Below, in pieces: positions 25,820 through 40,463 of a DNA stretch of 64,000 nucleotides (positions within the stretch are counted from its first letter, which is position 1; every line of letters begins with the position of its first letter). Position numbers and translations under genes: made by a program. The DNA comes from a bacterium (GTDB lineage: Bacteria; Pseudomonadota; Alphaproteobacteria; Rickettsiales; RI-342): assembly GCA_016124905.1 (NCBI GenBank), contig WGMV01000011.1:1-64000 (forward strand), written 5' to 3'. The notes below the pieces were generated by a model. It was not told where the DNA came from and did no database searches. It worked only from the letters and a program-made list of their open reading frames with translations.

Positions 25820-26359
25820 ATGCCTCAATACGCAGGACACATTACCAGCAAGGGCCTCGGCGCGGTTCAATTGCTGATCGTCGAGGATCAGGAAGCGCTT
25901 TGCACCCTGCTGGAACGCGCCCTGCGCCGTCTCGGTTTCGAACAAATCACCATCGCCAACGACGCCTACCACGCGATGGAAGCCATCCGCAAAAAAATAC
26001 CCGACCTTATTCTGACCGACTGGATGCTCGGCCATGGCGACGGCATCTCGCTCACCAAGGCCATCCGCGCCAGCACGGACGCCATGCTCTCCACTGTTCC
26101 CATCATCATGATTTCCGGCCGCAACACGGTGGAGGATATTCAGCATGCCCGCGATGCCGGCATTACCGAATTCGTCGCCAAACCCTTCAGCCTCCAGGAT
26201 ATCTGCGATCGCATCGTGGCCGTGGTGGAAAAACCGCGCATGTTCGTGGTGGCCCCGCAATTTATCGGCCCCGACCGCCGCCGCACCAAGGGCAAACAGG
26301 TAAAAAGCGAACGCCGCACACGCCCCTCTCCCATCACTGACGCCAAGGCGGGCAGCTGA
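25820..26359 (+). CDS. Single-domain response regulator with GPDRRR tail (module A)
   Basis: 179 residues with GGAG upstream. The receiver domain spans about 15-140: acidic pocket VEDQE, phospho-acceptor Asp67 in LTDWML, Thr/Ser in IMISGRN and Lys in VAKPFSL. It carries no output domain. After the receiver comes a basic tail with FVVAPQFIGPDRRRTKGKQ and further Arg/Lys residues. Two bases downstream lies a small helical partner gene. The same receiver-tail-partner arrangement recurs at 39436-40463, with matching tail motif. The role is unknown; such CheY-like regulators usually act by protein contact. Confidence 0.9.
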   Translation: MPQYAGHITSKGLGAVQLLIVEDQEALCTLLERALRRLGFEQITIANDAYHAMEAIRKKIPDLILTDWMLGHGDGISLTKAIRASTDAMLSTVPIIMISGRNTVEDIQHARDAGITEFVAKPFSLQDICDRIVAVVEKPRMFVVAPQFIGPDRRRTKGKQVKSERRTRPSPITDAKAGS

Positions 26360-26361
26360 CC

Positions 26362-26865
26362 ATGACCCCGCCTGATGACGATGTAAGGTTCATTCCGCCA
26401 GACTATAAACTGAAGAAAAAAATCGGCATCGAGCTGAAATATATCTTCACCCCCGCCCGCATCCGCGCCGCGCAAATGGTGTTTGACGAAGGCCGCCACA
26501 GCCTTCACCTGGATTGCGTCGCCCATGTGCAGCGCATTCGCGATCTGGTGGAGAAACAACCGCACGACACCCAGCGCAACATCGACGAAATCATGGGCCT
26601 GGCGCTCAACACCCGCTGCACGTCCGATATGGCGGGCTTCCCCATTGCGCGCGATCTGGCGCAGATTCTGTTTCTCTTCAGCAAAAGCATCCGCAAGCTG
26701 GACCGCGAGGCCTGCGCCATCATCGATAACCTCTGCAGCTCCATCCACGCCGTTTACGCCGAGAACCGCACCAGCCCGAGCGACCATCTCAGCATCATGG
26801 TGACCCAGCAGTTCGAAAACGCCATCCGCCATTATTTTTCGCATCACGCAAAGGCCAGCAGTTAA
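26362..26865 (+). CDS. Alpha-helical partner protein of response regulator (module A)
   Basis: 167 residues, predicted mostly helical, no signal peptide and no membrane segment. The N-terminus has PPDYKLKKKIG followed by PARIRAAQMVFDEG; the same pattern (PPDTSLKQKIG, DADRVESAQQAVF) starts the partner in module B, so the two are homologues. The middle helices contain NTRCTSDMAGFPIARDLAQ. It is two bases from the response regulator and must be co-translated. A phosphatase, phosphotransfer or scaffold role is possible. I do not recognise a named family. Confidence 0.8.
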   Translation: MTPPDDDVRFIPPDYKLKKKIGIELKYIFTPARIRAAQMVFDEGRHSLHLDCVAHVQRIRDLVEKQPHDTQRNIDEIMGLALNTRCTSDMAGFPIARDLAQILFLFSKSIRKLDREACAIIDNLCSSIHAVYAENRTSPSDHLSIMVTQQFENAIRHYFSHHAKASS

Positions 26866-26884
26866 GCCATTTGAAAGGCATGCC

Positions 26885-28174
26885 ATGCCGAAAGAACCCA
26901 CCTACGAACTTGATACGATGTTTGAAACGATCCTTCAGGACGTGGCAGACACACATGCCATGCAAACCCTGGAAGAGCCTATTCGCCCCAGCGTACTTGA
27001 TAACCCCGATCTCCAGGGCACGCTGTACAGCCCCATCATCCGAAACTCATTCGACAGCCATCAATACCACATCACCAGCGTGGCCTGCCCCGCCCATTAT
27101 CATGGACGCAGCTTTTATAACGGCAGAAGCGAAACGTTCTTGCTGGAAGTGATCGGCATCCCCTTCACGCAGAAAGACGTGCAAAACAGCATGAGCGCAT
27201 TAAAACATGGAATGGCTAAATTAATGCCGCCCGAAGCCGTTCAGCTCTTTACAGATCACTCCATCCGCCAGGGCTTGAGCAAGAAAGACGCCGATTACGA
27301 AGCCTACACCGAATCCTACATGTTCGCCTGCCGCAGTGCCATTCGCGACATAGAACGCCCCATTCCCATCACCCGTGACACGATGTTTCAGCTTCGCAGC
27401 CTTGCTAAAGAAAAAAACGGCCGTGCGGTACGGGATGCTTTAAACGAGCTGGACACCCGCCCTTATGTGGCGAATTTCCCTGAACTCGCCATCACCATGA
27501 TTGCCTATGGAACCGCGCATCGACGTTTCATTGCCGAATTACTAAAACACACCGAACAATCCAACCTGCGCGAAGACCAGAAAGCAAACATCGCGGATTT
27601 CTTCAGCGGAGAGAATGGCAGTAACGAGCGTATCGACTTCAACCTGCGCCTGGATAATCTTTTTACCATCATTATCCCGCTTATCTGTGCCGAATACGCC
27701 TCCCCTACCATTCAGGAAATGGACCCGGCCAAACGGATGCGCTGCGCCATCCAGCTGGCAATGGTCGAAATTAATGAACTGGACCTGTTTGATACCATCA
27801 CGCACCAGGCTGCCCATCCCCAGCTTGCAGAAGCATTGGCCAGGAATCCGGTTCCGGAAGACGCCTATTTCCCTGTCAAAGATAACCCGCCCGATATCCA
27901 TTTTGTCTGCCCGGCGAAGGCACATATCCAAAAAACCATGGCAGGGGTTAGCGAAACCTGCACCCAACAAGGCCATGAAGGCGAGTGGCTTTCAAATGCG
28001 GTGGATTTTGTACGCGAAAACCCCGATCTATTTAGCGATATCACCAGGCACATTGAAACGCGGATTGTAAAAAAACAGGATTACCCTCCCATTCAAATTG
28101 ATGAACTGGGTCAGTGCCCCGATAACATCCTGACAACCCTCACCAACGTTATTGGCGGCATATTAAGAGGATAG
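26885..28174 (+). CDS. Unknown 429-residue cytoplasmic protein
   Basis: The ATG at 26885 has an AAAGG-type ribosome site and lies 19 bases after module A, so the three genes are probably one transcript. No signal peptide, transmembrane segment or recognised motif. The protein looks mixed alpha/beta and acidic, with YHITSVACPAHYHGRSFYNGRSETFLLEVIGIPF early and helical stretches later (ELAITMIAYGTAHRRFIAELLKH). The C-terminal third has scattered Cys and His (HFVCPAKAHIQ). I cannot assign a function; base composition is a little less G+C-rich than neighbours. Confidence 0.7.
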   Translation: MPKEPTYELDTMFETILQDVADTHAMQTLEEPIRPSVLDNPDLQGTLYSPIIRNSFDSHQYHITSVACPAHYHGRSFYNGRSETFLLEVIGIPFTQKDVQNSMSALKHGMAKLMPPEAVQLFTDHSIRQGLSKKDADYEAYTESYMFACRSAIRDIERPIPITRDTMFQLRSLAKEKNGRAVRDALNELDTRPYVANFPELAITMIAYGTAHRRFIAELLKHTEQSNLREDQKANIADFFSGENGSNERIDFNLRLDNLFTIIIPLICAEYASPTIQEMDPAKRMRCAIQLAMVEINELDLFDTITHQAAHPQLAEALARNPVPEDAYFPVKDNPPDIHFVCPAKAHIQKTMAGVSETCTQQGHEGEWLSNAVDFVRENPDLFSDITRHIETRIVKKQDYPPIQIDELGQCPDNILTTLTNVIGGILRG

Positions 28175-28253
28175 CCCTCTTAAACAGTCTGCCCCGCGCA
28201 AAATTATGGACGTCCGGCCACTCTGCCGCTAAATAGCTTCCTCCACGGGCTGC

Positions 28254-28345
<92 letters not shown>

Positions 28346-28380
28346 GGCATACCGGTAATCTTTAGAATCAGGCTAGATAC

Positions 28381-28980
28381 ATGAAGAAATTCTGGGATGA
28401 CCGGTATAGCCAGGACTCCTTCGCCTATGGCACGAGGCCGAATGATTTTCTTGCCGAGACGGCATCCCGCATCCCTCCAAACAGCGATATTCTCAGCATC
28501 GGCGAGGGGGAAGGACGAAATGCCGTATTCCTAGCCACCTTGGGTCACCATGTCGTCGCGACAGACCAATCCGACATCGGCATGGCGAAAGCTCACAAGC
28601 TGGCCGAGCAATCCGGCTGCGCAATAACCACCATTGCGTCGGATCTTGCAGAGTTTGACTTTGGTGAGCAACGTTACGACGCCATCATATCCATCTTTTG
28701 CCACCTGCCCCAGCAACTGAGAAACAAGGTTCATTCCAGCATCAGGAAATCGCTGAGAAAGGGCGGTTTATACATCATTGAATCCTACTCCCCGGATCAG
28801 CTGTTGCAAAATACCGGTGGCCCCAAAGACGTTACCTGGCTGGTAACACTGGACGAATTGCAGCAGGAATTTACCGGTTTTAACATAATCCATGCCCAAT
28901 CACTGGCGCGCGATGTGGTTGAAGGAACTCACCACACCGGGTCGGCCGCGGTCACTCAATTCATTTGCCAGAAGCCGTAG
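28381..28980 (+). CDS. Class I SAM-dependent methyltransferase (TehB-like)
   Basis: 199 residues. It starts MKKFWDDRYSQDSFAYGTRPNDFL, the N-terminal signature of the TehB/thiopurine-type methyltransferases. SAM-binding motif I is ILSIGEGEGRNAVFLA with motif II VVATDQSDIGM and the acidic motif IASDLAEFDF. The C-terminus (HHTGSAAVTQFICQKP) is also typical. It lies 37 bases after tRNA-Ser(CGA). Substrate unknown; a tellurite-detoxification role is not implied by the sequence alone. Confidence 0.88.
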   Translation: MKKFWDDRYSQDSFAYGTRPNDFLAETASRIPPNSDILSIGEGEGRNAVFLATLGHHVVATDQSDIGMAKAHKLAEQSGCAITTIASDLAEFDFGEQRYDAIISIFCHLPQQLRNKVHSSIRKSLRKGGLYIIESYSPDQLLQNTGGPKDVTWLVTLDELQQEFTGFNIIHAQSLARDVVEGTHHTGSAAVTQFICQKP

Positions 28981-29103
28981 ATTCCATCGCCGCAGGGTCT
29001 GCACAATTTTTGCACAAACAATCCGGAAACTTTGCACATTGCCGCCATCACGGCTGCACAGGCATATGGAATCATACCGCCATGTTCACCCATGGAGGCT
29101 CCT

Positions 29104-30591
29104 ATGCACGCCCAGCCCATCGCCCAGTCCCTGCAAAGCCGGGCGAGCTACAAACTTCTTAGCCTGACAGGCCTTGTCACCGTTGGCGACATGCTTCTCT
29201 ACAACCATGCCCTTGGCTGGACGCTTGGGCTTTTCGGCCTGCTCATGCTGCTGGCGGTGCACGCGCACAACTGCCACGAGCGCCGTACCCGCATGGGCGA
29301 TGCCGCCTTTTTCGCCACCGCCGGCCTTGCGCTGGCAATGGTGGAAAGTCCAGGCATCCTGTCGGCCCTGCTATATGGCATCAGCCTGACGGCTTATGCC
29401 CTGCTGCCGCAGCTGGGTAGCACGGAAAACACATGGATCACCCTCAAATCCTCCCTTTTCCATCTTCTGACCGGATGGTGGCGCTTTTTCCGCCAGACTC
29501 GTCTGTGGCTTTATCTCTACCGGCACATGAAGCGCCGCAACGGCAGGCAGCGTCATTTTGTGCTGCACTGGTTGATGCCTCTCACGCTTACCGCCCTTTT
29601 CATGCTGCTTTTTTTCCAGGCCAACCCACTGATTGCCCTAACCATTCGCCAGGTTAATTGGCAGAGTTTAGGGGAATATATTTCCTTCCAGCGCATGGCC
29701 TTCTGGTTGGCCATCGCGGCGGTCGGCTGGGCAGTCATCCGTCCCAAGCTGACGCGCATGCCGGTATTCAGGCTCAATTACCTGCTGCACGAAGAGGAAA
29801 TCGGCTTTCTGAAGACAATCTTCAATCCACGCTCCATCATCACCTCGCTCCTGCTGTTTAACGGTTTGTTCCTGCTGCAGAACATCATGGATATTCTCTT
29901 CATCTGGACCGGGTCGGAACTCCCGGAAGGCATCACCCATGCCCAATATGCGCAGCAGGGCGCCTACCCGCTTATCATCACCGCCCTGATGACGGGCGGC
30001 TTCACCCTGGCGACCCTGCGTCCCGGCAGCGCAATCGCAGCCATCCCAGCCATCCGCGCGCTGGTTTACGCCTGGGTGGCGCAGAACATCTTCCTCGTCA
30101 CTTCCGCCGCGCTTCGCCTTTTGAGTTACATCGAGGCCTATTCCCTCACCTATCTGCGCGTGGCCGCACTCCTCTGGATGGTGCTGGTCGGTGTCGGACT
30201 GGCGTTGATCGTCCTCGGCAACATGCTGCGCAAAAACAATATCTGGCTCATCAACAGCAACCTCGCCACCCTTTACGGCCTGTTATATATCTGTTGCTTC
30301 GTCAATATCGGCGGCATCATGGCAGACTATAACGTGAAACATTGCAGGGAGATTGACGGCAAAGGTGCCTCATTGGACGTAAGTTACCTCTATCATAAGG
30401 TAGGGGTGGATGCCCTGCCCGCGCTGCGCTGGTTTGAGCATAATGGCACCAACGCCTTTGTGTTGAACCGCGTAACCGAAACCGATTACCAGCTGGAGTG
30501 GGAACTGCGCAGCAGAATGGAAAACTGGAAAAGTTGGACCTACCGCAACCTGCGCCTGCTCCCCACCATCGACAACGACAATGCAGAGTAA
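29104..30591 (+). CDS. DUF4173-type polytopic membrane protein
   Basis: 495 residues from the ATG with GGAGG five bases upstream; longer in-frame starts are less likely. There are about ten to twelve hydrophobic helices, starting near residue 25. The segment RIRQ-type RAALLWMVLVGVGLALIVLGNMLR-like helix and the soluble C-terminal part NVKHCREIDGKGASLDVSYLYHKVGVDALPALRWF match the DUF4173/DUF4153 group of uncharacterised inner-membrane proteins, several of which sit next to two-component systems. It heads a tightly packed run of five genes ending in a histidine kinase. Confidence 0.78.
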   Translation: MHAQPIAQSLQSRASYKLLSLTGLVTVGDMLLYNHALGWTLGLFGLLMLLAVHAHNCHERRTRMGDAAFFATAGLALAMVESPGILSALLYGISLTAYALLPQLGSTENTWITLKSSLFHLLTGWWRFFRQTRLWLYLYRHMKRRNGRQRHFVLHWLMPLTLTALFMLLFFQANPLIALTIRQVNWQSLGEYISFQRMAFWLAIAAVGWAVIRPKLTRMPVFRLNYLLHEEEIGFLKTIFNPRSIITSLLLFNGLFLLQNIMDILFIWTGSELPEGITHAQYAQQGAYPLIITALMTGGFTLATLRPGSAIAAIPAIRALVYAWVAQNIFLVTSAALRLLSYIEAYSLTYLRVAALLWMVLVGVGLALIVLGNMLRKNNIWLINSNLATLYGLLYICCFVNIGGIMADYNVKHCREIDGKGASLDVSYLYHKVGVDALPALRWFEHNGTNAFVLNRVTETDYQLEWELRSRMENWKSWTYRNLRLLPTIDNDNAE

Positions 30592-30595
30592 AGCG

Positions 30596-31636
30596 ATGAA
30601 CCTTCCACCACTTAAGCTACCCATCTTCCAGCTTCCCTACATTATCAAACCAATGGATTTCTGCCTGACATTGCTAGGCTGCGTCTTCCTGATCTGCAGC
30701 CTAGCAAAATGGGATACACGCGCAGAGCTGTTCACGCACTTTATGCTACAATACGCAGTGGCATCCCTCACCCTTACGCTGCTTTACCCCCTATTACGTG
30801 CAGACAAAACCCGCTGCCTTATTGCCGCCTTTCTGTTTCTGGCTTTCAGCATCCCCGTACTGCAAGCCTTCTGGCCTGGCCAGGTCCATCGTGGCGACCG
30901 TTATGAGGACATCACGCTGCTGCAGTTCAACGTCAATTACAGCAACCCCAACATGGAAAAACTCGCCGGGTGGATCAATAATTACGCCACCATCGACCGC
31001 AACGTAAAATCCACCGTCGAAAAGACTCAGCCCGACATAGTCGTGCTGCAGGAAACAGGAGCGGACCTTATCGCCAAGCTAGAATCCTTGAAACAACAAT
31101 ACCCCTACCACCTGCTTTCGCCGAAAGACGGCGGCGCCTTCGGCTCAGCCATCTACAGCAAACTCCCGATCATCGCCTCCAAACGGCTGCATCTGCCCGA
31201 CAACGGCTGGAACGAATATTCCACTCTCACGCTTTCCACCCCCACCTACCACATGCATGTTCAACTGACGGAACTGCACGCGGTCAACCCTACCGGTACA
31301 CGCAAAGCCCGTCAGCGGAACCATGAGCTGGAACAGATCGCCACCATCCTTCTGCAGCAGAACAATATGCATAAGATCCTGGTGGGAGACCTGAACATCT
31401 CCCCCTATTCCCCCTGGTTCCGCCGCCTGGAGCGCCAGTCCGGCCTGAGTAACGCCATGCGCGGCGTCAGCCTCATGCCCACCTGGCCGAGCTTCATGCC
31501 TTTCTTCATGCGTATCCCGATCGATCAGTTGTTAGTGTCGGCCCCTATCGAAATCCTCTCCCGCACCGTGGAGCACGACATGGATTCTGACCATCTTCCC
31601 GTCATCACCCGCCTTCGCGTTTATAAGGCGAATTAA
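30596..31636 (+). CDS. Membrane-anchored endonuclease/exonuclease/phosphatase-family protein
   Basis: 346 residues; an alternative ATG 15 bases earlier overlaps the previous stop codon. Three transmembrane helices occupy about 15-95. The EEP domain follows with the conserved ILLQFNVNYSNP-type start (TLLQFNVNYSNP), catalytic Glu in VVLQETGADL, the Asn-containing VGDLNISPYSPWF and the terminal SDHLPVITRLRV. Such proteins hydrolyse phosphodiesters in nucleic acids or lipids; the membrane anchor puts the domain on the periplasmic side, as in the YafD-like family. Starts five bases after the DUF4173 gene. Confidence 0.85.
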   Translation: MNLPPLKLPIFQLPYIIKPMDFCLTLLGCVFLICSLAKWDTRAELFTHFMLQYAVASLTLTLLYPLLRADKTRCLIAAFLFLAFSIPVLQAFWPGQVHRGDRYEDITLLQFNVNYSNPNMEKLAGWINNYATIDRNVKSTVEKTQPDIVVLQETGADLIAKLESLKQQYPYHLLSPKDGGAFGSAIYSKLPIIASKRLHLPDNGWNEYSTLTLSTPTYHMHVQLTELHAVNPTGTRKARQRNHELEQIATILLQQNNMHKILVGDLNISPYSPWFRRLERQSGLSNAMRGVSLMPTWPSFMPFFMRIPIDQLLVSAPIEILSRTVEHDMDSDHLPVITRLRVYKAN

Positions 31637-31638
31637 CC

Positions 31639-32145
31639 ATGTTCATCGCCCACCTTCCCGCAGGCTACCTGCTCACCCGTCGTATCCAGCGCCAAAGCGG
31701 CAACCATTCGGGCGCCTTGCTGGCCACAGGCCTTGCCGCCAGCATTTTTCCCGATATCGATCTGCTCTATTTTTACCTCATTGATCGGGGCCAGACGCTG
31801 CACCATCATTACATCACGCATCTGCCCATGGCATGGCTGCTGGCGGGTGGCCTGAGCATACTCAGCAGCTGGATGCTCGGCATGCGGCAGACCACGCTCG
31901 TCTGCATCACCATCCTCGCCAATGCCATGCTGCACATGGTGTTGGATTCCGTCGCCGCAGGCATTCTGTGGCTCTATCCCTTTTCCGACATGGAACTTAA
32001 CTTGGTGCATGTCCCCGCTCGTCACGGCTGGTGGGTATGGAACTTCCTCCTGCACTGGACTTTCCTGCTGGAACTACTGATAATCCTCATCGCCTTTCTG
32101 GAATGGAACCGCCATTATGCCCAAACAGATCCTCATCGTGGATGA
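31639..32145 (+). CDS. DUF457/YdjM-like membrane protein (putative metal-dependent hydrolase)
   Basis: 168 residues, five hydrophobic segments. The family's His/Asp motifs are visible: MFIAHLPAGYL, FPDIDLLYFYL, HHHYITHLPMAW and MLHMVLDSV. These match the LexA-regulated YdjM/DUF457 group, thought to be membrane metal-dependent hydrolases. It starts two bases after the EEP gene and its last 29 bases overlap the response regulator, so the genes are coupled. Substrate unknown; a role in lipid or cell-envelope phosphate chemistry would fit the EEP neighbour but is inference. Confidence 0.75.
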   Translation: MFIAHLPAGYLLTRRIQRQSGNHSGALLATGLAASIFPDIDLLYFYLIDRGQTLHHHYITHLPMAWLLAGGLSILSSWMLGMRQTTLVCITILANAMLHMVLDSVAAGILWLYPFSDMELNLVHVPARHGWWVWNFLLHWTFLLELLIILIAFLEWNRHYAQTDPHRG

Positions 32146-32806
32146 CGACCCGCATATCCGCGAGGTGCTTCAATTCGCGCTCAATAAGGCCGGCTACACC
32201 ACCGCAACCGCCCTCCATGGCCGGGATGCGCTGGAGAAGCTAAGCAAGCAAGCCTTCGATGCCTTGGTGCTCGACATCACCATGCCGGAAATGGACGGGC
32301 TGGAACTCTGCAAGGAACTCCGCAAAACCTCCGAGCTTCCAATCCTGTTCCTCTCCTCCCGCGATGAGGAGATCGACCGTATCATCGGTTTCGAAGTTGG
32401 CGGAGATGATTACATTACCAAGCCCTTCAGCCCGCGGGAGCTGGTAGCACGCATCAAGGCCGTGCTTAAGCGCAGCCACGGCACCGCCACGCCCGTCAGC
32501 AACGCGCCGCTGCAGAAAGGCGCCCTGAAGCTGGACCATGACCGCTACACCGCCTACTGGCACGGTAAGGAAACCCTCCCCCTCACCGCCACGGAATTCG
32601 CCCTGCTGGCCGCGCTGCTGAAACATCCCTCCAAAGTCTTTCAGCGCGATGAACTGATGGACGGCGCCTATGGCGACATCACCGTCAGCGACCGAACCAT
32701 CGACAGCCACATTCGCCGCATCCGCCAGAAATTCGCCGCCAGCGGTGCGGAAGAAGTCATCGAGACCATGCACGGCATCGGCTATAGGCTCGGCCCGTGC
32801 GAGTGA
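32117..32806 (+). CDS. OmpR/PhoB-family response regulator
   Basis: 229 residues. The receiver domain has the acidic pair VDDDPHIREVL, phospho-acceptor Asp53 in VLDITMPEMDG, the switch Ser in LFLSSRDEEID and Lys in YITKPFSPREL. The C-terminal winged-helix DNA-binding domain (about 130-229) contains LPLTATEFALLAALLKHPSKVF and the recognition region SDRTIDSHIRRIRQKF, ending HGIGYRLG. It overlaps the histidine kinase by 10 bases and belongs to the same transcript, so the two form a cognate pair. Target genes are unknown, although the upstream membrane genes are obvious candidates. Confidence 0.93.
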   Translation: MPKQILIVDDDPHIREVLQFALNKAGYTTATALHGRDALEKLSKQAFDALVLDITMPEMDGLELCKELRKTSELPILFLSSRDEEIDRIIGFEVGGDDYITKPFSPRELVARIKAVLKRSHGTATPVSNAPLQKGALKLDHDRYTAYWHGKETLPLTATEFALLAALLKHPSKVFQRDELMDGAYGDITVSDRTIDSHIRRIRQKFAASGAEEVIETMHGIGYRLGPCE

Positions 32807-34380
32807 GGTTTCACTCGCTCCCGCGCTGGCAGCTGCGCACCATTTTGCTGCTCGTGCACCTACTGGTGCTGGTGATTCCCATCGGCAGCATCTACACCTT
32901 TCGTATTTACGAAAACGAGCTGCTCCGCCAGACGGAATCCGAACTCATTGCCCAGGGGGCCTACGTCGCCTCTATTTACAAACACACGCTGCTGAACAGC
33001 CTTCCACCCGACCAGTTATATGGCACGCGCCTGACCGACCTGCCTCCCAGGGCCGATGAGAGATACACCCCCATCCAGCCCGCACTGAGCTTTGCCACCA
33101 CACACATCCATCCCCCGCGGGCAGAAGCCAAAGCAGGCCATCCGCCTGCTTCCCCCTATGCATTGAAAGCCGCGGAGACCATCACCCCCATACTGGAAGA
33201 AGCCCTGCTCACCACCCTGGCCGGATTGCGCGTGACGGACGAACACGGCACCATCCTCATCGGCCATGATGAAACGGGCCTTTCCATCGCGGATGTCCCC
33301 GAAACCGCCGAGGCCATGAAAGGCCGCTATGCCGCCTCCATCCGCCAGCGTATCTCCGATCAGCCCGATCCTTCCGTCACCTCTATCAGCCGTGCGGCGG
33401 GCATCCGCGTGTTCGTCGCCATCCCGGTGATGGATGGCGATCATCTTCTGGGCACGGTGCTGCTTTCACGTTCACCCCGCAACCTCGTCAAGGCACTGTA
33501 TGACAATCGTCTGATGGTCGCCGTCGCGGGCGGCATGATCCTCGGTATCACCATCCTGCTGGCGTTGCTCACCTCCCATTTCATCAGCCGACCCATCCAT
33601 GCCCTGATGGAACAGACGCGCCGTGTGGCCGCGGGGGAAAAACATATCCCACCCATCGCCTCCCCGGCCACGCAGGAATTCGCCATGCTCTCCCAGCAGA
33701 TCTCCGTGATGGCCGATACCATCGCCAGCCGGTCGGACTATATCCGCAATTTCGCCATGCATGTCTCACACGAGTTTAAAACGCCGCTCACTGCCATCCA
33801 GGGTGCCATCGAGCTGATCCAGGAACATGGCAACACCATGCCAAAAGCGCAGTTCCGCAAATTCCTCGCCAACATTGTAAAAGATACGGATCGGCTGAAA
33901 ATACTGGTCACCCGCCTGCTGGAACTCGCCCGTGCCGATGTGATGGAAACCACCGAAGGAAATGCCTGTCTGCAAACCGTCATCACCGGTCTTCAAAGCG
34001 ATTCCCAGGACAAGGGTATCGCCCTCACTCTTTCGGGCGATACGGAACTGACCCTTCCCATGCCCGGCGACATCGCCCGCAGCATTTTCGGCAGCCTGAT
34101 CGACAACAGCATCCAGCATGGCGCCCGCACCATGACCGTCACCGCCAAGCGGGAGGTCAGCGGCTACAGCCTGCGTTTTCAGGATGACGGCAAGGGCATC
34201 TCCGCCACCAATGCTGGCAAATTATTCACCCCATTCTTCACCACGCGGCGCGAGCATGGCGGCACGGGGCTCGGGCTGGTCATCATCCGCGCCATGCTGA
34301 ACGCCCACCATGCCGACATCCGTTTGGACGCCGCCGATAAAGGCGCCTGTTTTACGATCTACAGCAGCGACGTGGCCTGA
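32797..34380 (+). CDS. Sensor histidine kinase (membrane-bound)
   Basis: 527 residues, GTG start. One transmembrane helix lies at about 12-35 and another at about 235-260, with a 200-residue periplasmic sensor between. HAMP follows (about 265-315), then the HisKA domain with His325 in the H-box MHVSHEFKTPL and the HATPase domain with N-box LIDNSIQHG, G1 DDGKGIS and G2 GGTGLGL. The kinase would phosphorylate the OmpR-type regulator encoded just upstream. The sensor domain has no obvious ligand family. Its last 22 bases overlap the 3' end of the convergent coiled-coil gene. Confidence 0.93.
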   Translation: MRVRFHSLPRWQLRTILLLVHLLVLVIPIGSIYTFRIYENELLRQTESELIAQGAYVASIYKHTLLNSLPPDQLYGTRLTDLPPRADERYTPIQPALSFATTHIHPPRAEAKAGHPPASPYALKAAETITPILEEALLTTLAGLRVTDEHGTILIGHDETGLSIADVPETAEAMKGRYAASIRQRISDQPDPSVTSISRAAGIRVFVAIPVMDGDHLLGTVLLSRSPRNLVKALYDNRLMVAVAGGMILGITILLALLTSHFISRPIHALMEQTRRVAAGEKHIPPIASPATQEFAMLSQQISVMADTIASRSDYIRNFAMHVSHEFKTPLTAIQGAIELIQEHGNTMPKAQFRKFLANIVKDTDRLKILVTRLLELARADVMETTEGNACLQTVITGLQSDSQDKGIALTLSGDTELTLPMPGDIARSIFGSLIDNSIQHGARTMTVTAKREVSGYSLRFQDDGKGISATNAGKLFTPFFTTRREHGGTGLGLVIIRAMLNAHHADIRLDAADKGACFTIYSSDVA

Positions 34381-34892
34381 ATCCTCGGCTTCTCTGCATC
34401 CTTCAGCCTTTCGGACAATTCCTTATCATCCATGCCCATCATATCCCGCATGGTCAGCAGCAGGGCTTCCATCCGTTCCTTGATGTGGTTGGTGTTGGAT
34501 GGAATCGCGGCCACATATTCGGCGATGTAGCTATAGATCTCGTCCACATTCTTGGCCGGCTCTTTCTCAAAATGGTCGATCACCTTGTCCAGAATCTCTT
34601 TTTCGTCTTTCGGAGCCGTATCTCGCACCAGCTTCATGACTTTCATGAGTTTTTTGACTTCGACCTGCTCCTGGATGAAGCGCTCGATGCCCACCTCGAG
34701 CATCCGCTGCTTCATGATTTCGCCCTGCTTTTCCTGCCAGGCTTTTTTCTGGAGGATCGGCGCGTTGGTCTTGGCGATCAGCTCTTCCATGCGGCTGGCG
34801 AAATCCATCGCCTGGTCCAGCGTTTCCTTGTTGCGCTTGGCGCTTTGGCCAAGCCCCATTGCATTATCGCCCTGAATGGACATACCCGCCAT
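34359..34892 (-). CDS. Unknown coiled-coil-rich cytoplasmic protein
   Basis: 177 residues, highly charged and helical, with long Lys/Glu stretches (KKAWQEKQGEIMKQRMLEVGIERF, KKLMKVMKLVRDTAPKDEKE). No signal, membrane segment or family motif is recognised. The AGGAGG in the 3' arm of the upstream terminator is nine bases from the ATG and is the best ribosome site. The gene is convergent with the histidine kinase, overlapping it by 22 bases. Alternative starts at residues 4 and 12 exist. Confidence 0.65.
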   Translation of the reverse strand: MAGMSIQGDNAMGLGQSAKRNKETLDQAMDFASRMEELIAKTNAPILQKKAWQEKQGEIMKQRMLEVGIERFIQEQVEVKKLMKVMKLVRDTAPKDEKEILDKVIDHFEKEPAKNVDEIYSYIAEYVAAIPSNTNHIKERMEALLLTMRDMMGMDDKELSERLKDAEKPRIQATSLL

Positions 34893-34925
34893 AAAAAAGC
34901 CCCTCCTGTCATGACAGAAGGGGCT
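34893..34925 (-). terminator. Terminator that also contains the next gene's Shine-Dalgarno
   Basis: On the minus strand a 28-base near-perfect palindrome (AGCCCCT...AGGGGCT, centre CTGTCATGACAG) is followed by a run of T. It ends the RcnB-like transcript. The 3' arm holds AGGAGG, and the T-run ends directly at the ATG of the coiled-coil protein gene. Confidence 0.85.
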
Positions 34926-34956
34926 ATGCAGGTTTTATGCCAAAAATTAGGCGTTA

Positions 34957-35469
34957 TTATTCCAGAGCCGAGAGGATAACGGCTGCATCGAGTACCTTTT
35001 TGGTAGCCTCTGAAATCAGCAGGATATCCTTATCGACCCAGATATACTGAGCACGCGGCGGTGGCGGCGGCAACATCACCACCACATCCCGCGGCACTTC
35101 CCAATAGGTGGTGGTGGCAGGCAGCACTTCGCCCACGACATAATGCTTCACATGGCCAGGGGGCATGCAGCCATATTTCTTGGCCAACCCGGGAGGGCAA
35201 TGCTCTCGGTAATACGGGCGGAGGCGGTTGCCGATGGCCTCCCGCTCATCCCCTTTCAGCACCACAAGGCGCCGGTCGCCATGATAGTCGCCATGTTGAT
35301 GATCGTCGGCATGGCGGCGATCATATTCCTCCAGCCGTTTTTCCAGGCTCTTATGCCCCTTGCCATGCCCTTTGCCATTTCCATGGCCATCTTTTGCCAA
35401 AACAGGCGAAGCCGCCAGGCAAACAGCCAGTCCCAAGGCGGAAACAAGCCCCAAACCGTTAATGCGCAT
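34957..35469 (-). CDS. Secreted His-rich RcnB-like protein
   Basis: 170 residues. Signal peptide at 1-25 (MRINGLGLVSALGLAVCLAA...VLA). The mature N-terminus is rich in His, Gly and Lys (KDGHGNGKGHGKGHK), then RRHADDHQHGDYHGDRR. The C-terminal half, with RPYYREHCPPGLAKKYGCMPPGH, WVDKDILLISEATKKVLDA, resembles the RcnB (Ni/Co homeostasis) periplasmic fold. Two Cys flank the CPPGLAKKYGC loop and may form a disulfide. Metal binding is plausible but not shown. Confidence 0.72.
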   Translation of the reverse strand: MRINGLGLVSALGLAVCLAASPVLAKDGHGNGKGHGKGHKSLEKRLEEYDRRHADDHQHGDYHGDRRLVVLKGDEREAIGNRLRPYYREHCPPGLAKKYGCMPPGHVKHYVVGEVLPATTTYWEVPRDVVVMLPPPPPRAQYIWVDKDILLISEATKKVLDAAVILSALE

Positions 35470-35642
35470 CCGTTTTCTCCATCATGCGTTGAACATCTTT
35501 CTCTGCGACCTATGATCTAAAAAACCCATATGAACCAGTTAAGTTTTGTTCATGTAGGGTGCTTCACAAGGCTGTCACAATTCTTTCACATAATTATTGT
35601 GCAATGCAAAACAACAATCCACGACAGATCGGATAAACAGGG

Positions 35643-36797
35643 ATGGCCGATAACCTGCTGGATAACCAGGCTTCACAGATGATACGCGGCGCCAAGGCGC
35701 AACAGGCGGACATGTTTAATCTCGCCCTCGCCCGCGGAGCGCAGGAAGCCGACCGCACCCCGGCCAAAGCTACCCCGAACACCCGTTTTCTCTCTTCGCT
35801 GCTGTACAACTTGGGCAATATCTCCTGCATCGTCTCCGGCATTCAGCGTGGCCGCCATAATCCGGACGGCAAATTCACCATGAACGATATTTCCGAGCTC
35901 ATGGTCGGCGTCAGCTTTAGCGTGGGCGATGTTCTGATGGCCGCCGTAAGCAAGGACGCCCCATCCGAAATTGAACGGCTGGAGCACGGCCTGAAGGACC
36001 ACCTTCAGCGCCACCGCATCAAACTTCCCGCCCAGCCCAACGCCGAGAACATCCACAAAAGCGGCGCCCTGCCCGCTGTGTATGATTTTATCAAAAACAA
36101 CATCGTCTCCATCAAATGCATCACGGAAGGCACGGCCGGGCTGTTCATGATCAACGCGGCCACCAAAAAGGGCAACCTCAACAAGGGTAAGCTGGCGGCC
36201 GGTCTGCTGGTTTCCACCGGCTGGTTTTCCACCTTGCTGATGAACCACCTGCCTCCGCCGGATGCCGCCAGCAGCCTGCCGGATAAAATCCGCGACAACC
36301 CCAAGGGTTGGATCGCCCGCCCGGCGGCCATCGGCAATAACATCTCAAACTTTATCGGCGCGGTGAACGAGCGCAAACGCTTCATGGGCGAGGTACACGC
36401 AGCCGAGGCTGCCCTGCAAACCGCCACCGCCGAGGAAGCCGGCACCGCGACGGAAAAGCTCCGCATCGCCAGGCTGAAACAGCATGATTACATCTGGAAC
36501 ATGGTCTCCGCCTGCAGCTTTCTGATGGCCAATTACCTGTTCGGCATTTCCAGCGGCGGCAACAAGCCCGCAACCTCGGCCGAGGAACAGGCCATCGCCA
36601 GCGAGGTTGTCAACATCTCCGCCAAAACGCTGGCGAGTATCCCGGCGGAGATGCGCGATGCCGCGGTCAATCAGGCCGCCATTTATACCGCCAAGCAATC
36701 CCATGTCGGCGAAAGCCGGGAGCGCATTGCCGAGATGATCCAGGAGCAGATTCGCGCGTTCGAAAAAACCGCGCCTCAACCCGCACTCGCCCGTTGA
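35643..36797 (+). CDS. Unknown 384-residue protein with hydrophobic segments
   Basis: The start MADNLLDNQASQMIRGAKAQQ follows a weak GGG ribosome site. No signal peptide is seen. Moderately hydrophobic helices lie at about 50-65, 85-105, 165-200 and 285-305, e.g. LAAGLLVSTGWFSTLLMNHL, suggesting membrane association. A Gln/Glu-rich helical C-terminus ends in a Pro-rich tail. No family recognised. The preceding 173-base gap (35470-35642) holds no gene. The next gene is convergent and starts 33 bases after the stop. Confidence 0.65.
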   Translation: MADNLLDNQASQMIRGAKAQQADMFNLALARGAQEADRTPAKATPNTRFLSSLLYNLGNISCIVSGIQRGRHNPDGKFTMNDISELMVGVSFSVGDVLMAAVSKDAPSEIERLEHGLKDHLQRHRIKLPAQPNAENIHKSGALPAVYDFIKNNIVSIKCITEGTAGLFMINAATKKGNLNKGKLAAGLLVSTGWFSTLLMNHLPPPDAASSLPDKIRDNPKGWIARPAAIGNNISNFIGAVNERKRFMGEVHAAEAALQTATAEEAGTATEKLRIARLKQHDYIWNMVSACSFLMANYLFGISSGGNKPATSAEEQAIASEVVNISAKTLASIPAEMRDAAVNQAAIYTAKQSHVGESRERIAEMIQEQIRAFEKTAPQPALAR

Positions 36798-36829
36798 TCC
36801 GTCGGCTCTCCTCAACCCATTACCTTTGC

Positions 36830-37819
36830 CTAATGGGCCGCCAGGCCGAACAGCCCTATCAGATACACCACCACCAGCAGCAGGCTTTCCAGCCCGATGC
36901 CGACGACCGTTCGCGAGGGCTTGAGATAAAGCGCGCCGGTATAAAGCACCGTCAGCAGCGCCCCGAGCGCCACCACATACAGGTCGCTCGGCTTGGCGGA
37001 TGATAAAGCCGGCACACCCGCGCAAAAGGATGTCAGCAGCAGCAGGCACGGCAGAAACGCGTTGCCGCCCAGGATATCGCTGATGGCGAGCTGGTACTTC
37101 CGCATCCGCACGGCCTCAATGCCGGTGGAAATTTCCGGCATGGACGTCGCCAGCGCCAGAAAGGTGGCGCCAAAAATCGCCCCGTCCATGCCCAGTTCCT
37201 TGGCCATGCCGCTGCTCACGCCTTCAATCGCATATCCCGCGAACAAGGTGGCGGACGATGCCGCCAGAAACACCGCCACCACCTTCCAGGTATCCGCCTC
37301 GTGCACGGCGGCATGCTCATCGGTGTAACGTGCCGTTTTAGGGCCACGTGCATTGCGCACCACCACCAGCCCCACCAGCCAGCATAGCACGATGGCCAGC
37401 TCCGCCGGGGCAATGCCGTGCCACACCAGCGCGGCCGGCATGGTATTGCCCATCACCACCAGTGCCAGAATACCCAGCAGAAAAAGCCCCTCCAGTATCA
37501 ACTGCCCGCTGGAGGCATAATGGCTGAGCGGCTTGTGCTTTTCAGGGCGGAACCGGTCCATCAGGGCAATGACGACCGTCTGGATGGCGATGCCGCCAAG
37601 GATATTGCCCACTGCCAGCTCGGGGGCATGGTGCAGCCCTGCGGTCACGGCAATCGCCACTTCCGGCAGGTTGGTGACAATCGCCAGCAGCACCATGCCG
37701 CCCAGCGCCTGTTCCATGCCCATGCGTCGCGAAAGCACGTCCACGCTGCGCGTCAGGTGAATCCCGGCCAGCCAGATGATGGCGGCCAAAAGAATAAACT
37801 GAAGCGCCAGCATGCCCAT
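36830..37819 (-). CDS. CaCA-family cation/proton or cation/Na+ exchanger (YrbG-like)
   Basis: 329 residues, about ten transmembrane helices in two inverted halves. The alpha repeats contain TNLPEVAIAVTAGLHHAPELAVGNILGG and ATSMPEISTGIEAVRMRKYQLAISDILGGNAF, in which the conserved (G/T)xxLPE and GN motifs bind Ca2+ or Na+. It starts at the ATG overlapping the TGA of the GDT1-family gene (TGATG), so the two are translationally coupled. Such exchangers usually export Ca2+, and pairing with a Mn/Ca exporter suggests joint divalent-cation detoxification. Confidence 0.85.
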   Translation of the reverse strand: MGMLALQFILLAAIIWLAGIHLTRSVDVLSRRMGMEQALGGMVLLAIVTNLPEVAIAVTAGLHHAPELAVGNILGGIAIQTVVIALMDRFRPEKHKPLSHYASSGQLILEGLFLLGILALVVMGNTMPAALVWHGIAPAELAIVLCWLVGLVVVRNARGPKTARYTDEHAAVHEADTWKVVAVFLAASSATLFAGYAIEGVSSGMAKELGMDGAIFGATFLALATSMPEISTGIEAVRMRKYQLAISDILGGNAFLPCLLLLTSFCAGVPALSSAKPSDLYVVALGALLTVLYTGALYLKPSRTVVGIGLESLLLVVVYLIGLFGLAAH

Positions 37820-38391
37820 CACTGCACCGCCACCACCCAGGAATAAATCTGCCACAGCCCGGTCGCCGCAAACAACGCGCAGGTGGCATACCGCAAAGCC
37901 TTTAGCGGCAGTTTGGCCAGCAGCGTGTCGCCAAGCAGAATGGCGGGAATATTCGCCGCCAGCATCCCAAGCGTGGTACCCACCGTCACCAGCCATATAT
38001 TCTGATAATCCGCCGCCAGCGTCAGCGTTGCCAGCTGGGTTTTATCGCCGATCTCGGCAAAAAAGAAAGCCACCAGGCTGGCGAAGAAGGCGCCATAGGA
38101 CGTGTGATGCTTGCTTTCATCCGGCGCGTCATCCGGCAAAAGCGTCCATAACCCGACCGCAATGAACAACACGCCCGTGATCAACCCGAGCCAGCCGCCC
38201 GCCACCAGCTCGGAAAGCCAGATGCCCAGCCATGACGTAACGCCGTGGTTCACCAACGTGGCGATCAGCACCCCGATCAAAATGGGCCAGAATGTGCGGT
38301 AGCGTGCCGCCAGCATGATGGAGAGCAACTGGGTTTTATCGCCCATTTCCGCAAGCGCGATCCAGGCAAAACAATGCAGCACGACATCCAT
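37819..38391 (-). CDS. GDT1/TMEM165 (UPF0016, MneA-like) Mn2+/Ca2+ exporter
   Basis: 190 residues, six transmembrane helices. Both copies of the family signature E-x-G-D-K-(T/S) are present: ALAEMGDKTQLLSIML in helix 1 and FFAEIGDKTQLATLTLA in helix 4. These residues form the cation site. In bacteria such proteins export Mn2+ (MneA) or Ca2+. It is the first gene of a two-gene operon with the CaCA exchanger; AGGATTG-type ribosome site upstream. A palindromic box lies about 70 bases upstream of the start. Confidence 0.9.
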   Translation of the reverse strand: MDVVLHCFAWIALAEMGDKTQLLSIMLAARYRTFWPILIGVLIATLVNHGVTSWLGIWLSELVAGGWLGLITGVLFIAVGLWTLLPDDAPDESKHHTSYGAFFASLVAFFFAEIGDKTQLATLTLAADYQNIWLVTVGTTLGMLAANIPAILLGDTLLAKLPLKALRYATCALFAATGLWQIYSWVVAVQ

Positions 38392-38460
38392 ATCAATCCT
38401 CCAGCTGCCTTTTGTATGGTGTCTAATCGCCCGGGCGTCAACCTTGCCAAGATTTAATCA

Positions 38461-38476
38461 GAATCATTCATTATTC
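38461..38476. promoter_or_regulatory. Candidate Fur/Mur-like box upstream of GDT1 gene
   Basis: GAATCAT-TC-ATTATTC is an inverted repeat with 6 of 7 arm matches, within an A/T-rich stretch of the 148-base divergent gap 38392-38539. It resembles the Fur-family 7-2-7 architecture. No Mn riboswitch (yybP-ykoY) consensus is visible. Confidence 0.35.
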
Positions 38477-38539
38477 ACGCGCATTTTTAGATCCACCCGC
38501 TTATGGTGCCTTCATCACAGATAGATAATGGAGATCCCC

Positions 38540-38878
38540 ATGAAATCCGCCCAAAAACTTATCGGCACGGCGTTGTTTGCCGCCCTGCTTGCCTCTCCCG
38601 TCCTTGCGCAGAGCAATGTGGTGGTCAGCGGCGCTGGCTCCGCAGGCAGCAATGTGGATATGGACCTCAACACCCGCAGCGGCACGCTGAACCCGGCCAT
38701 CGGCAACCCGCCCATCAATGACAGTTCGCGTATCCAGGCCGATGTGGAAGCCGAAAAACCCGCCAACCCCACGCAAAAGCGCATCGATGCCAACCGCGCC
38801 AAGATAAAGGCCCGTCAGGAAACGCTGATCAACAAACAGGCCCCGGCTGAAAACACCGGTGCCCCCACCGCCAATTAA
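38540..38878 (+). CDS. Small secreted protein, unknown
   Basis: 112 residues from the ATG with GGAG six bases upstream. Signal peptide 1-23 (MKSAQKLIGTALFAALLASP..AQ). The mature part is small and polar: a Gly/Ser/Asn start (SNVVVSGAGSAGSNVDMDLNTRSG), then a Lys/Arg-rich helical segment (TQKRIDANRAKIKARQETL). The next gene starts 15 bases later and encodes a protein of similar design, so the two are probably co-expressed envelope proteins. Confidence 0.72.
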   Translation: MKSAQKLIGTALFAALLASPVLAQSNVVVSGAGSAGSNVDMDLNTRSGTLNPAIGNPPINDSSRIQADVEAEKPANPTQKRIDANRAKIKARQETLINKQAPAENTGAPTAN

Positions 38879-38893
38879 TCAAAGGAAACAGAC

Positions 38894-39307
38894 ATGAAGA
38901 AACTTCTCATCACCGCGGTGGCGCTCGCCACCATTTCCACCAGCGCCTATGCTCAGGTTGGTGCCAGCAACAGCGAATCCTCCGCCGGTGTGGCGCCCCC
39001 CGCCATTCCCCCGGTTGGCGAAGGCCTGGACATCAACGCCAATGCTAAGGCGGGCGTTTCGGCTGAGACTCCGGGCATCGACAACCGCGAGGCCCGGCAG
39101 AACCAGCGCATTGAAAATGGCGTGGAATCCGGCCAGCTGAACGAACATGAGGCCAACCGCCTTGAGCGCCAGCAGGACCGTATTGAAAATGCCGAAACCA
39201 AAGCAAAAGCCGATGGTGAGGTGACCAAAAAGGAACGCGCCCGCATTCAGCACAAGCAAAACAAGGCAAACCATAACATTGCACGTAAAAAACATAACAA
39301 ACACTAA
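38894..39307 (+). CDS. Small secreted Arg/Glu-rich helical protein
   Basis: 137 residues. Signal peptide 1-20 (MKKLLITAVALATISTSAYA). After a disordered linker, the C-terminal half is a charged helix: REARQNQRIENGVESGQLNEHEANRLERQQDRIENAETKAKADG then KKERARIQHKQNKANHNIARKKHN. This pattern (QxxRIxxGxxSGxLxxxEAxRLExxQxxI) occurs in many small proteobacterial periplasmic proteins of unknown role. A strong terminator follows. Confidence 0.78.
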   Translation: MKKLLITAVALATISTSAYAQVGASNSESSAGVAPPAIPPVGEGLDINANAKAGVSAETPGIDNREARQNQRIENGVESGQLNEHEANRLERQQDRIENAETKAKADGEVTKKERARIQHKQNKANHNIARKKHNKH

Positions 39308-39323
39308 GCTTGCCCGAGCAAAC

Positions 39324-39357
39324 CAAAGGGGCGGGCCTCGGCCCGCCCCTTTTCTTT
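39324..39357 (+). terminator. Rho-independent terminator
   Basis: AAAGGGGCGGGC-CTCG-GCCCGCCCC followed by TTTTCTTTT. It ends the two-gene secreted-protein transcript. Confidence 0.92.
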
Positions 39358-39435
39358 TGGATACAGGCAATTATGCCTCGCCTGCCACCGGCTGTGTTTA
39401 CACTTTGGTAAACCCTGACCGGTAAAAGTGAAAAA

Positions 39436-39963
39436 ATGAACCTGCCACCCAACATGCTTCCACCACGGCTCACCGCCGAAGATGTGTTGAGCAACATCCA
39501 CCTCCTGATTGTGGATGACGACCGTATTACGCGTCGCCTGGTGCATGATCTGTTGAAAATTCTTGGTTTTTCCAATGTGCAGATTGAGCCGAACGGCCGC
39601 GCTGCGCTTGATTACATCGCCTTCAATCCGGTGGATATCATTATTTGCGACTGGAAAATGGCGCCGATGGACGGCATTGAAATGACACGCGCCGTGCGCA
39701 CCCAGTTGAGTGGCGGCAAGCGCTTTACCCCCATCATCATGCTGACGGGCAAAGGGGAGGAAAACGACGTCAAGCTCGCGCGGGATTCCGGCATCACCGA
39801 ATACCTGCTCAAGCCCTTTACGGCCGACACCCTCTTTTCCCGCATCAAGGCCGTGGTGGATAACCCGCGCGGCTTCGTCATGTCCACCGCCTATACCGGG
39901 CCGGACCGCCGCCGCCGCAGCGGCATGCCGCCCGACGGCATGAAAAAACGCGAGACGGATTAA
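39436..39963 (+). CDS. Single-domain response regulator with GPDRRR tail (module B)
   Basis: 175 residues. The receiver domain (about 20-145) has VDDDRITRRLV, phospho-acceptor Asp72 in IICDWKMAPMDG, Thr in IMLTGKG and Lys in LLKPFTADTLF. As in module A, a tail follows with FVMSTAYTGPDRRRRSGMPP and basic residues. No output domain. The partner gene starts five bases after the stop. A strong terminator precedes it, so it forms its own transcription unit. Confidence 0.9.
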   Translation: MNLPPNMLPPRLTAEDVLSNIHLLIVDDDRITRRLVHDLLKILGFSNVQIEPNGRAALDYIAFNPVDIIICDWKMAPMDGIEMTRAVRTQLSGGKRFTPIIMLTGKGEENDVKLARDSGITEYLLKPFTADTLFSRIKAVVDNPRGFVMSTAYTGPDRRRRSGMPPDGMKKRETD

Positions 39964-39968
39964 CGGCC

Positions 39969-40463
39969 ATGAAGAAACCATCCAAGGCCACCATCCTGCC
40001 GCCTGACACGTCGCTAAAACAGAAAATCGGCAACCGTCCGCTTGAAACCCTCGTCGATGCCGACCGCGTGGAATCCGCGCAGCAGGCGGTATTCAATAAT
40101 CTTGACCAGTTTCTGAACCAGACCCAGACGGACATAAAATCCATCGAGCTGCTGCTGGAAGAGATCGAACAGGGCTACAGCGGCGACCTGAACCTGATCA
40201 CCAGCATGGAAAACGCCTTTTTCCGCATCATGAGCACGGCCGGCACCTTTGGTTACATGCTCGCAAGCCGCGTGGCCAACCAGGGGCATGATTACGTGGT
40301 GAAACACCACCAGATGCACGCCGCCGAGCTCAAGGTCATCCGCGCCTATGCCCTGGCGCTCAAAAGCATTTTCACCCACAATATACGTGGCGACGGGGGT
40401 AAAATGGGCAAGGAACTGCTCACCAACCTGACCATGCTCACCGATAAATTCAGCCGTTCATAA
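39969..40463 (+). CDS. Alpha-helical partner protein of response regulator (module B)
   Basis: 164 residues, predicted all-helical, cytoplasmic. It shares with the module A partner the N-terminal PPDxxLKxKIG and the following DADRVESAQQAVF helix. The centre has LITSMENAFFRIMSTAGTFGYMLASRVA and the C-terminal helix ELKVIRAYALALKSIFTHNIRG. No catalytic His-x-x-x-pattern of a canonical Hpt domain is obvious, though several conserved polar positions could fit. Function unknown; a dedicated receiver-binding protein is the simplest idea. Confidence 0.8.
   Translation: MKKPSKATILPPDTSLKQKIGNRPLETLVDADRVESAQQAVFNNLDQFLNQTQTDIKSIELLLEEIEQGYSGDLNLITSMENAFFRIMSTAGTFGYMLASRVANQGHDYVVKHHQMHAAELKVIRAYALALKSIFTHNIRGDGGKMGKELLTNLTMLTDKFSRS

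What the first reader, a model, noticed from the sequence alone, without database searches (positions are those of the whole stretch)
25820..40463. Duplicated two-gene module: CheY-like regulator with GPDRRR tail plus a homologous helical partner
Two separate loci (25820-26865 and 39436-40463) encode a receiver-only regulator with a post-receiver F-V...GPDRRR tail, followed within 2-5 bases by a 164-167-residue helical protein. The two partners share PPDxxLKxKIG and an A-(D/R)-x-x-AQ helix, so the whole module was duplicated. Receiver and Asp/Lys sites are visible; no kinase or output domain is attached. Inference: the partner is a dedicated receiver-binding, phosphatase or phosphotransfer protein. 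I know of no description of this pair.
Basis: partly seen in the sequence, partly recalled or inferred. Interest (0 to 1): 0.65.

Follow-up and report, generated by a model that had tools for sequence, protein, structure and literature searches.

The report
CheY-like receivers paired with histidine-less Hpt
Two gene pairs here encode a CheY-like signalling receiver and a helical partner shaped like a phosphate-passing (Hpt) domain that has lost its phosphate-carrying histidine, a conserved module of one alphaproteobacterial order that suggests a signalling relay reused as a non-catalytic switch.

Summary
Each receiver has a GPDRRR tail and is followed after 2 or 5 bases by a 167- or 164-aa helical protein. 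A third copy lies elsewhere in the genome, after luxR and luxI. Of the 30 best of this genome's 43 receiver matches, only these three carry the tail.

The partner is not a fold of its own. Profiles, AlphaFold and Foldseek place it with CheA-P1-type Hpt domains. The phosphoacceptor histidine is missing in all three copies (L82, F85, Q99) and in every true family member examined in the window's order. The neighbouring acidic and glycine positions are eroded too. The bundle core and AGTFGY motif are largely kept, and dN/dS is about 0.1-0.2 in close pairs from related genomes.

Across 289 alphaproteobacterial genomes, 145 carry the family. In the class sample 71 of 94 partners keep the histidine, and 67 of 94 sit beside or fused to a tailed receiver. 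So a receiver-Hpt pair became, in this order, a receiver plus pseudo-Hpt, often fused into one protein, where the receiver's aspartate is often Glu.

Most likely a docking switch: the receiver binds a partner that cannot take its phosphate. New variant of a known kind; binding and output are untested.

The parts
25820..26359 (+). module 1 receiver (P0001, 179 aa): receiver domain only; phospho-Asp D67, Lys K121, Ser S99
   Evidence: ORF and translation; Pfam Response_reg 85.7 bits; site columns in the receiver alignment
26234..26284 (+). post-receiver tail PRMFVVAPQFIGPDRRR of P0001
   Evidence: direct reading; PR, GP and RR are invariant or nearly so in fused homologues; predicted as two short strands in a fused homologue
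26362..26865 (+). module 1 partner (P0002, 167 aa): pseudo-Hpt, Leu82 at the phospho-His position
   Evidence: ORF; leave-out profile 63 bits against 9.4 for the best shuffle; site column
26605..26607 (+). codon at the lost phospho-His position in P0002 (Leu82)
   Evidence: profile alignment column
39436..39963 (+). module 2 receiver (P0003, 175 aa): receiver domain only; phospho-Asp D72, Lys K126, Thr T104
   Evidence: ORF; Pfam Response_reg 86.4 bits; site columns
39865..39915 (+). post-receiver tail PRGFVMSTAYTGPDRRR of P0003
   Evidence: direct reading; conserved in the family
39969..40463 (+). module 2 partner (P0004, 164 aa): pseudo-Hpt, Phe85 at the phospho-His position
   Evidence: ORF; AlphaFold pLDDT 94.8; Foldseek best matches CheA P1; leave-out profile 131 bits
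40221..40223 (+). codon at the lost phospho-His position in P0004 (Phe85)
   Evidence: profile alignment column

Best explanation
Each pair is a two-part signalling module derived from an alphaproteobacterial receiver + Hpt pair. The receiver (P0001, P0003) still has the residues needed to be phosphorylated by kinases of the cell. Its tail and surface bind the partner, a CheA-P1-like four-helix bundle that keeps the Hpt docking shape. The partner has lost the phosphoacceptor histidine and its pocket, so phosphate cannot pass through that site. The most likely mechanism is a docking switch: the phosphorylation state of the receiver sets how it binds the pseudo-Hpt, and the complex (or the released partner) acts on a third protein, such as a kinase, a true Hpt or a motility component. 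In many relatives the two parts are one chain, and there the receiver Asp is often Glu, which suggests a permanently set complex. Shown: anatomy, homology, one-to-one coupling, loss of the His, purifying selection in relatives. Inferred: binding, its dependence on phosphorylation, and the output.
For: Hpt homology: the A3 profile hits CheA P1 domains of the PDB (2ld6 1e-8, 1tqg 2e-8, 1i5n 1e-7); Pfam Hpt matches 29 of 60 members, best 9e-6; AlphaFold of P0004 has pLDDT 94.8 and its best Foldseek matches are CheA P1, including the CheA3-P1:CheY6 complexes 3kyj and 3kyi. Coupling: in the order 64 of 69 family hits are fused to or next to a GPxRR-tailed receiver; 3 tailed receivers for 3 partners in this genome; a fused homologue is predicted with pTM 0.88 over both domains. 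Loss of catalysis: His 0 of 69 in the order against 71 of 94 in the class sample; H+1 acid or amide 80/80 and H+4 Gly 79/80 in His+ forms, while in the order the commonest residue at both is Ser (19 and 35 of 69). Not decay: dN/dS about 0.10-0.16 in the least saturated order pairs. The genome still has five genuine Hpt domains, none of them a partner.
Against: No binding data; no model of the window pair itself. The window partners do not reach the Pfam Hpt model on their own. P0002 is among the most divergent copies. Selection could not be measured for the window's own copies because no close relative carries them. Other histidines in these proteins could in principle carry phosphate.
Confidence: 0.6

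Rival explanations
1. The partner is a phosphatase (CheZ- or CheX-like in effect) that strips phosphate from its receiver.
For: Separate-gene pairs in the order keep the receiver Asp in 30 of 30, so phosphorylation still seems to matter there; a helical bundle docked on a receiver is how CheZ works (established knowledge).
Against: No CheZ, CheC or CheX match among the families reported. The fused forms mostly have Asp changed to Glu (23 of 36), leaving nothing to dephosphorylate. No polar catalytic residue was shown to be invariant in the bundle.
Confidence: 0.15
2. The pair is a sequestering inhibitor, like Osp or FixT: receiver and pseudo-Hpt together block a kinase or a true Hpt by occupying its docking face.
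For: Osp is a single-domain receiver that inhibits CckA and was not seen to be phosphorylated (PMC9430884). In relatives the module sits next to ctrA and cheR-cheB (L022, L050). The genome has several large receiver-bearing proteins and five true Hpts to compete with.
Against: Window receivers keep the full phosphorylation site, whereas the paper reports that Osp and FixT lack the acidic residues. No target has been identified.
Confidence: 0.15
3. The partner is still a phosphotransfer protein, using a different histidine, for instance the one in helix D (K-x-H-[IV]-D).
For: That helix-D histidine is present in 91 of 94 class members and 53 of 71 order hits, more widely than the canonical one. 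Why it is conserved is unexplained.
Against: The window genome's three copies lack it (Leu, Tyr, Leu). It is equally present in His+ forms, so it looks structural or interface-related rather than a substitute.
Confidence: 0.07
4. Ordinary receiver plus an unrelated small helical protein, adjacent by chance.
For: Pairwise similarity of the two partners is low.
Against: Fusions and tight adjacency across dozens of genomes; leave-out profile scores far above shuffles.
Confidence: 0.01

Closest known systems
CheA P1 (Hpt) domain, Pfam PF01627
   Same: Four-helix bundle; the profile reaches P1 domains at about 1e-8; AGTFGY-like segment after the His position; partner of CheY-like receivers.
   Different: No phosphoacceptor His, no conserved H+1 acid, H+4 Gly mostly replaced; an extra N-terminal PPDxxLKxKIG arm; not attached to a kinase; tied to a tailed receiver.
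Caulobacter HmrX (CC_1220), putative single-domain HPt of the HmrABCX pathway (PMC11481889)
   Same: Four-helix bundle most like CheA P1. A His+ family member, L170, has His at 81 and Ala at 152, as reported for HmrX, and lies next to a GPCRRR receiver.
   Different: HmrX has the histidine (H81).
MrrA (single-domain response regulator hub, PMC5964349), with PhyK and LovK acting as phosphotransferases
   Same: Receiver-only protein passing signals between kinases and Hpt-like domains in Alphaproteobacteria.
   Different: Its phosphotransfer partners carry a histidine and are kinase-like proteins; in the passages read no helical partner gene and no GPDRRR tail are described.
Plant pseudo-HPts (AHP6)
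   Same: Hpt fold that lost its histidine (named in PMC4709007).
   Different: Eukaryotic; an inhibitor of a plant phosphorelay (own knowledge); not paired or fused with a receiver.
Osp and FixT, single-domain receivers that inhibit kinases
   Same: Alphaproteobacterial receivers that work by binding, without detected phosphorylation (PMC9430884).
   Different: No Hpt-like partner described; the window receivers keep the phosphorylation residues.

Membership tests
Hpt domain (PF01627) | four-helix bundle of the Hpt type | tested here: met
   AlphaFold pLDDT 94.8; Foldseek best matches CheA P1, TM by target 0.77 for 1i5n_C and 0.82 for 1tqg, but E-values only about 0.04
Hpt domain (PF01627) | sequence relation to Hpt | tested here: met
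   Family profile to CheA P1 1e-8; 29 of 60 members hit PF01627, best 9e-6; P0002 and P0004 alone do not
Hpt domain (PF01627) | phosphoacceptor histidine | tested here: not met
   Leu82, Phe85 and Gln99 in the three copies; 0 of 69 in the order
Hpt domain (PF01627) | pocket around the His (acid or amide at H+1, Gly at H+4) | tested here: not met
   H+1 is D/N/E in 80/80 and H+4 is Gly in 79/80 His+ members; neither is conserved in the order
Hpt domain (PF01627) | phosphoryl transfer to or from a receiver | not testable with these tools
   needs biochemistry
single-domain response regulator | receiver domain without output or kinase domain | tested here: met
   Response_reg is the only Pfam family over its cut-off
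single-domain response regulator | phospho-Asp, Lys, Thr/Ser and acid pair | tested here: met
   P0001 and P0003 complete; the third copy P0006 has Met for Thr/Ser and DS for the acid pair
CheZ phosphatase | sequence match to CheZ | tested here: not met
   No CheZ family among Pfam matches of the two partners or among the 25 families listed for 60 members
CheZ phosphatase | phosphatase activity on the cognate receiver | not testable with these tools
   needs biochemistry
HmrX-type alphaproteobacterial HPt | orthology to CC_1220 and its His81 | tested here: inconclusive
   His+ relatives with H81 and A152 exist, but the HmrX sequence was not on hand; the window copies lack the His

The most novel reading that the evidence does not exclude
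A whole phosphorelay step has been turned into a non-catalytic protein switch in one bacterial order: the Hpt lost its histidine in every true member seen, and in most fused versions the receiver also replaced its aspartate by glutamate, so the module signals by conformation and docking alone.
Probability: 0.35. Interest if true: 0.75.

Novelty: new variant of a known kind. Interest (0 to 1): 0.55.

Why it matters
Pseudokinases and pseudoreceivers are known, and histidine-less Hpts are known from plants; I found no report of a bacterial family of histidine-less Hpts tied to one receiver type. Here loss of the His, gene fusion and Asp-to-Glu change are all visible among relatives, beside apparently intact His+ versions in other families of the class. 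That makes a direct test possible of how a phosphotransfer pair becomes a docking switch. The module also defines a broad alphaproteobacterial family (145 of 289 genomes sampled) for which the literature searched has no description under its GPDRRR signature.

Tried and rejected
Pfam and NCBIfam with single partners: nothing useful, only chance hits such as MGS at 0.006. Genome-contig scan with P0004 alone: no relatives. The alignment of 60 was too diverse for that scan; a subset of 8 worked. My first choice of 'histidine column' was wrong: it picked the helix-D His and was corrected. Tree-based tests of whether fusion goes with Asp loss, or His loss with Asp loss: too few independent pairs to decide. 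The plasmid collection gave one member without annotation, Niveispirillum, whose partner has Asp in place of the His. Foldseek of the fused model listed only receiver-type structures among the 50 rows shown, so it says nothing on the domain arrangement. Recent duplication: rejected by the tree. CheZ: no sequence support.
Full report
Observation. The receivers are ordinary by Pfam (85.7 and 86.4 bits), have no other domain over cut-off and share 38% identity including the tail. The partners are barely alike by BLASTP (29 residues, E=5e-4). A leave-out profile shows the relation is real: 63 and 131 bits against at most 12 for shuffles.

More copies. Searching the window's own genome found a third pair on contig 24: receiver P0006 with the tail KGPCRRR and partner P0005. 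It directly follows a luxI gene (Pfam Autoind_synth 38.9 bits, cut-off 24), with overlapping start and stop codons, and a gene that reads as LuxR-like lies upstream. The genome has 43 receiver matches. Of the 30 best, only the three with partners have a PRxF...GPxRR tail; the other 13 are weaker matches and were not checked for the tail.

Distribution and fusion. With a profile of the three partners, 39 of 131 genomes of the same order have matches. Many lie in frames of 340-380 residues. Reading them shows the receiver, the tail and the partner in one chain. In the final count the order gives 69 family hits without His: 36 fused, 29 adjacent and 4 apart. Of these, 64 have a tailed receiver fused or adjacent. 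The exceptions are a contig end or a run of N (L045, L040), a pair in reversed gene order (L061) and one partner beside ctrA instead of a tailed receiver (L050). Some loci overlap, so these counts are slightly inflated.

Identity of the fold. The iterated profile also picked up a genuine CheA P1 and another His-bearing Hpt (L065, L064). A 60-member alignment finds CheA P1 domains in the PDB at 1e-8, and 29 of the members hit Pfam Hpt at E up to 1, best 9e-6. The model of P0004 is confident (pLDDT 94.8, pTM 0.80). Its top Foldseek matches are CheA P1 structures, two of them from CheA3-P1:CheY6 complexes. Their Foldseek E-values are only about 0.04, so the fold match leans on the sequence evidence.

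The missing histidine. Across the class, 145 of 289 genomes have the family. In sampled class members 71 of 94 have the phosphoacceptor His; among named records 9 of 21 do, and most of those without it are same-order sequences already counted. In the window's order none of 69 has it (L 33, F 14, Y 9, E 6, others). The window genome has Leu82, Phe85 and Gln99 there. The H+1 acid or amide (80 of 80 His+ forms) and H+4 Gly (79 of 80) are eroded too, while A-G-T-F-G-Y is largely kept. The His state needs at least 13 changes on the tree, so it was probably also lost elsewhere in the class. Purifying selection in order pairs: dN/dS 0.126 for L007/L009 and about 0.10 for L014/L018; for several other pairs dS is saturated.

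The receivers. In the order, receivers encoded as separate genes keep Asp in 30 of 30 (one of these is the CheA-linked L065, one is ctrA at L050). Fused ones have Glu in 23 of 36, Asp in 10, Asn in 1 and are truncated in 2. In the class sample Asp is kept in 58 of 70, with Asn in 9. Whether fusion goes with loss of Asp could not be tested with independent pairs.

Domain arrangement. A fused relative, L007, is predicted with pLDDT 90 and pTM 0.88, so the relative placement of the two domains is predicted with some confidence. The tail forms two short strands, and the following linker has low confidence.

Interpretation. Shown here: a conserved receiver-partner module; Hpt-type homology and fold of the partner; absence of the canonical His in the order; selection in relatives; retained receiver chemistry in the window copies. 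Inferred: the partner binds the receiver; phosphorylation controls the binding; the pair acts on a third protein. Surroundings give hints of a motility or cell-density setting in relatives and in copy 3 (ctrA, cheR, cheB, luxR, luxI, mostly named by reading), but copies 1 and 2 have no telling neighbours: LPG synthase TM and glycosyltransferase genes upstream of copy 1, and a 1050-aa ORF downstream of copy 2 that I read as PutA-like by eye.

Comparison with the literature. No paper in the library holds 'GPDRRR'. The nearest characterised protein is Caulobacter HmrX (PMC11481889), a putative HPt with H81 that resembles CheA P1. A His+ family member, L170, has H81 and A152 at the positions printed for HmrX and sits beside a GPCRRR receiver. 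This is a lead only. MrrA (PMC5964349) and Osp (PMC9430884) show that single-domain receivers can act as hubs or as binding inhibitors in this class.

Verdict. The partner is a pseudo-Hpt and not a new fold, and the phosphotransfer option is unlikely for these two copies.

Noticed in passing
L066:3368-6186 (own genome, contig 24): luxR-like, luxI, receiver and pseudo-Hpt genes lie in one tight row; luxI, receiver and partner overlap at their ends, linking the third copy to acyl-homoserine-lactone signalling.
   Followed up: partly
L022, L050: In relatives of the third copy the module lies between genes that read as ctrA and cheR-cheB; at L050 only the pseudo-Hpt remains.
   Followed up: partly
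alignment column of helix D (K-x-H-[IV]-D) in the partner family: A second histidine is kept in 91 of 94 class members, more often than the phosphoacceptor itself, yet is lost in all three copies of this genome. Its role is unexplained.
   Followed up: partly
L010, L012, L017, L028 and other fused relatives: The receiver phospho-Asp is replaced by Glu in 23 of 36 fused proteins of the order.
   Followed up: partly
class loci L089, L094, L098, L102, L104, L110, L114, L141, L146: His+ Hpt partners next to receivers with Asn in place of the phospho-Asp: the opposite kind of loss.
   Followed up: no
window 6218-14914 (-): A 2898-aa protein with an N-terminal TPS secretion domain (two-partner secretion), otherwise without Pfam match at 1e-5.
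   Followed up: no
window 26885-28174 (+): A 429-aa protein directly downstream of module 1 with no Pfam match; possibly in the same operon.
   Followed up: no
window 32117-34380 (+): An ordinary response regulator and histidine kinase pair lies between the two modules.
   Followed up: no
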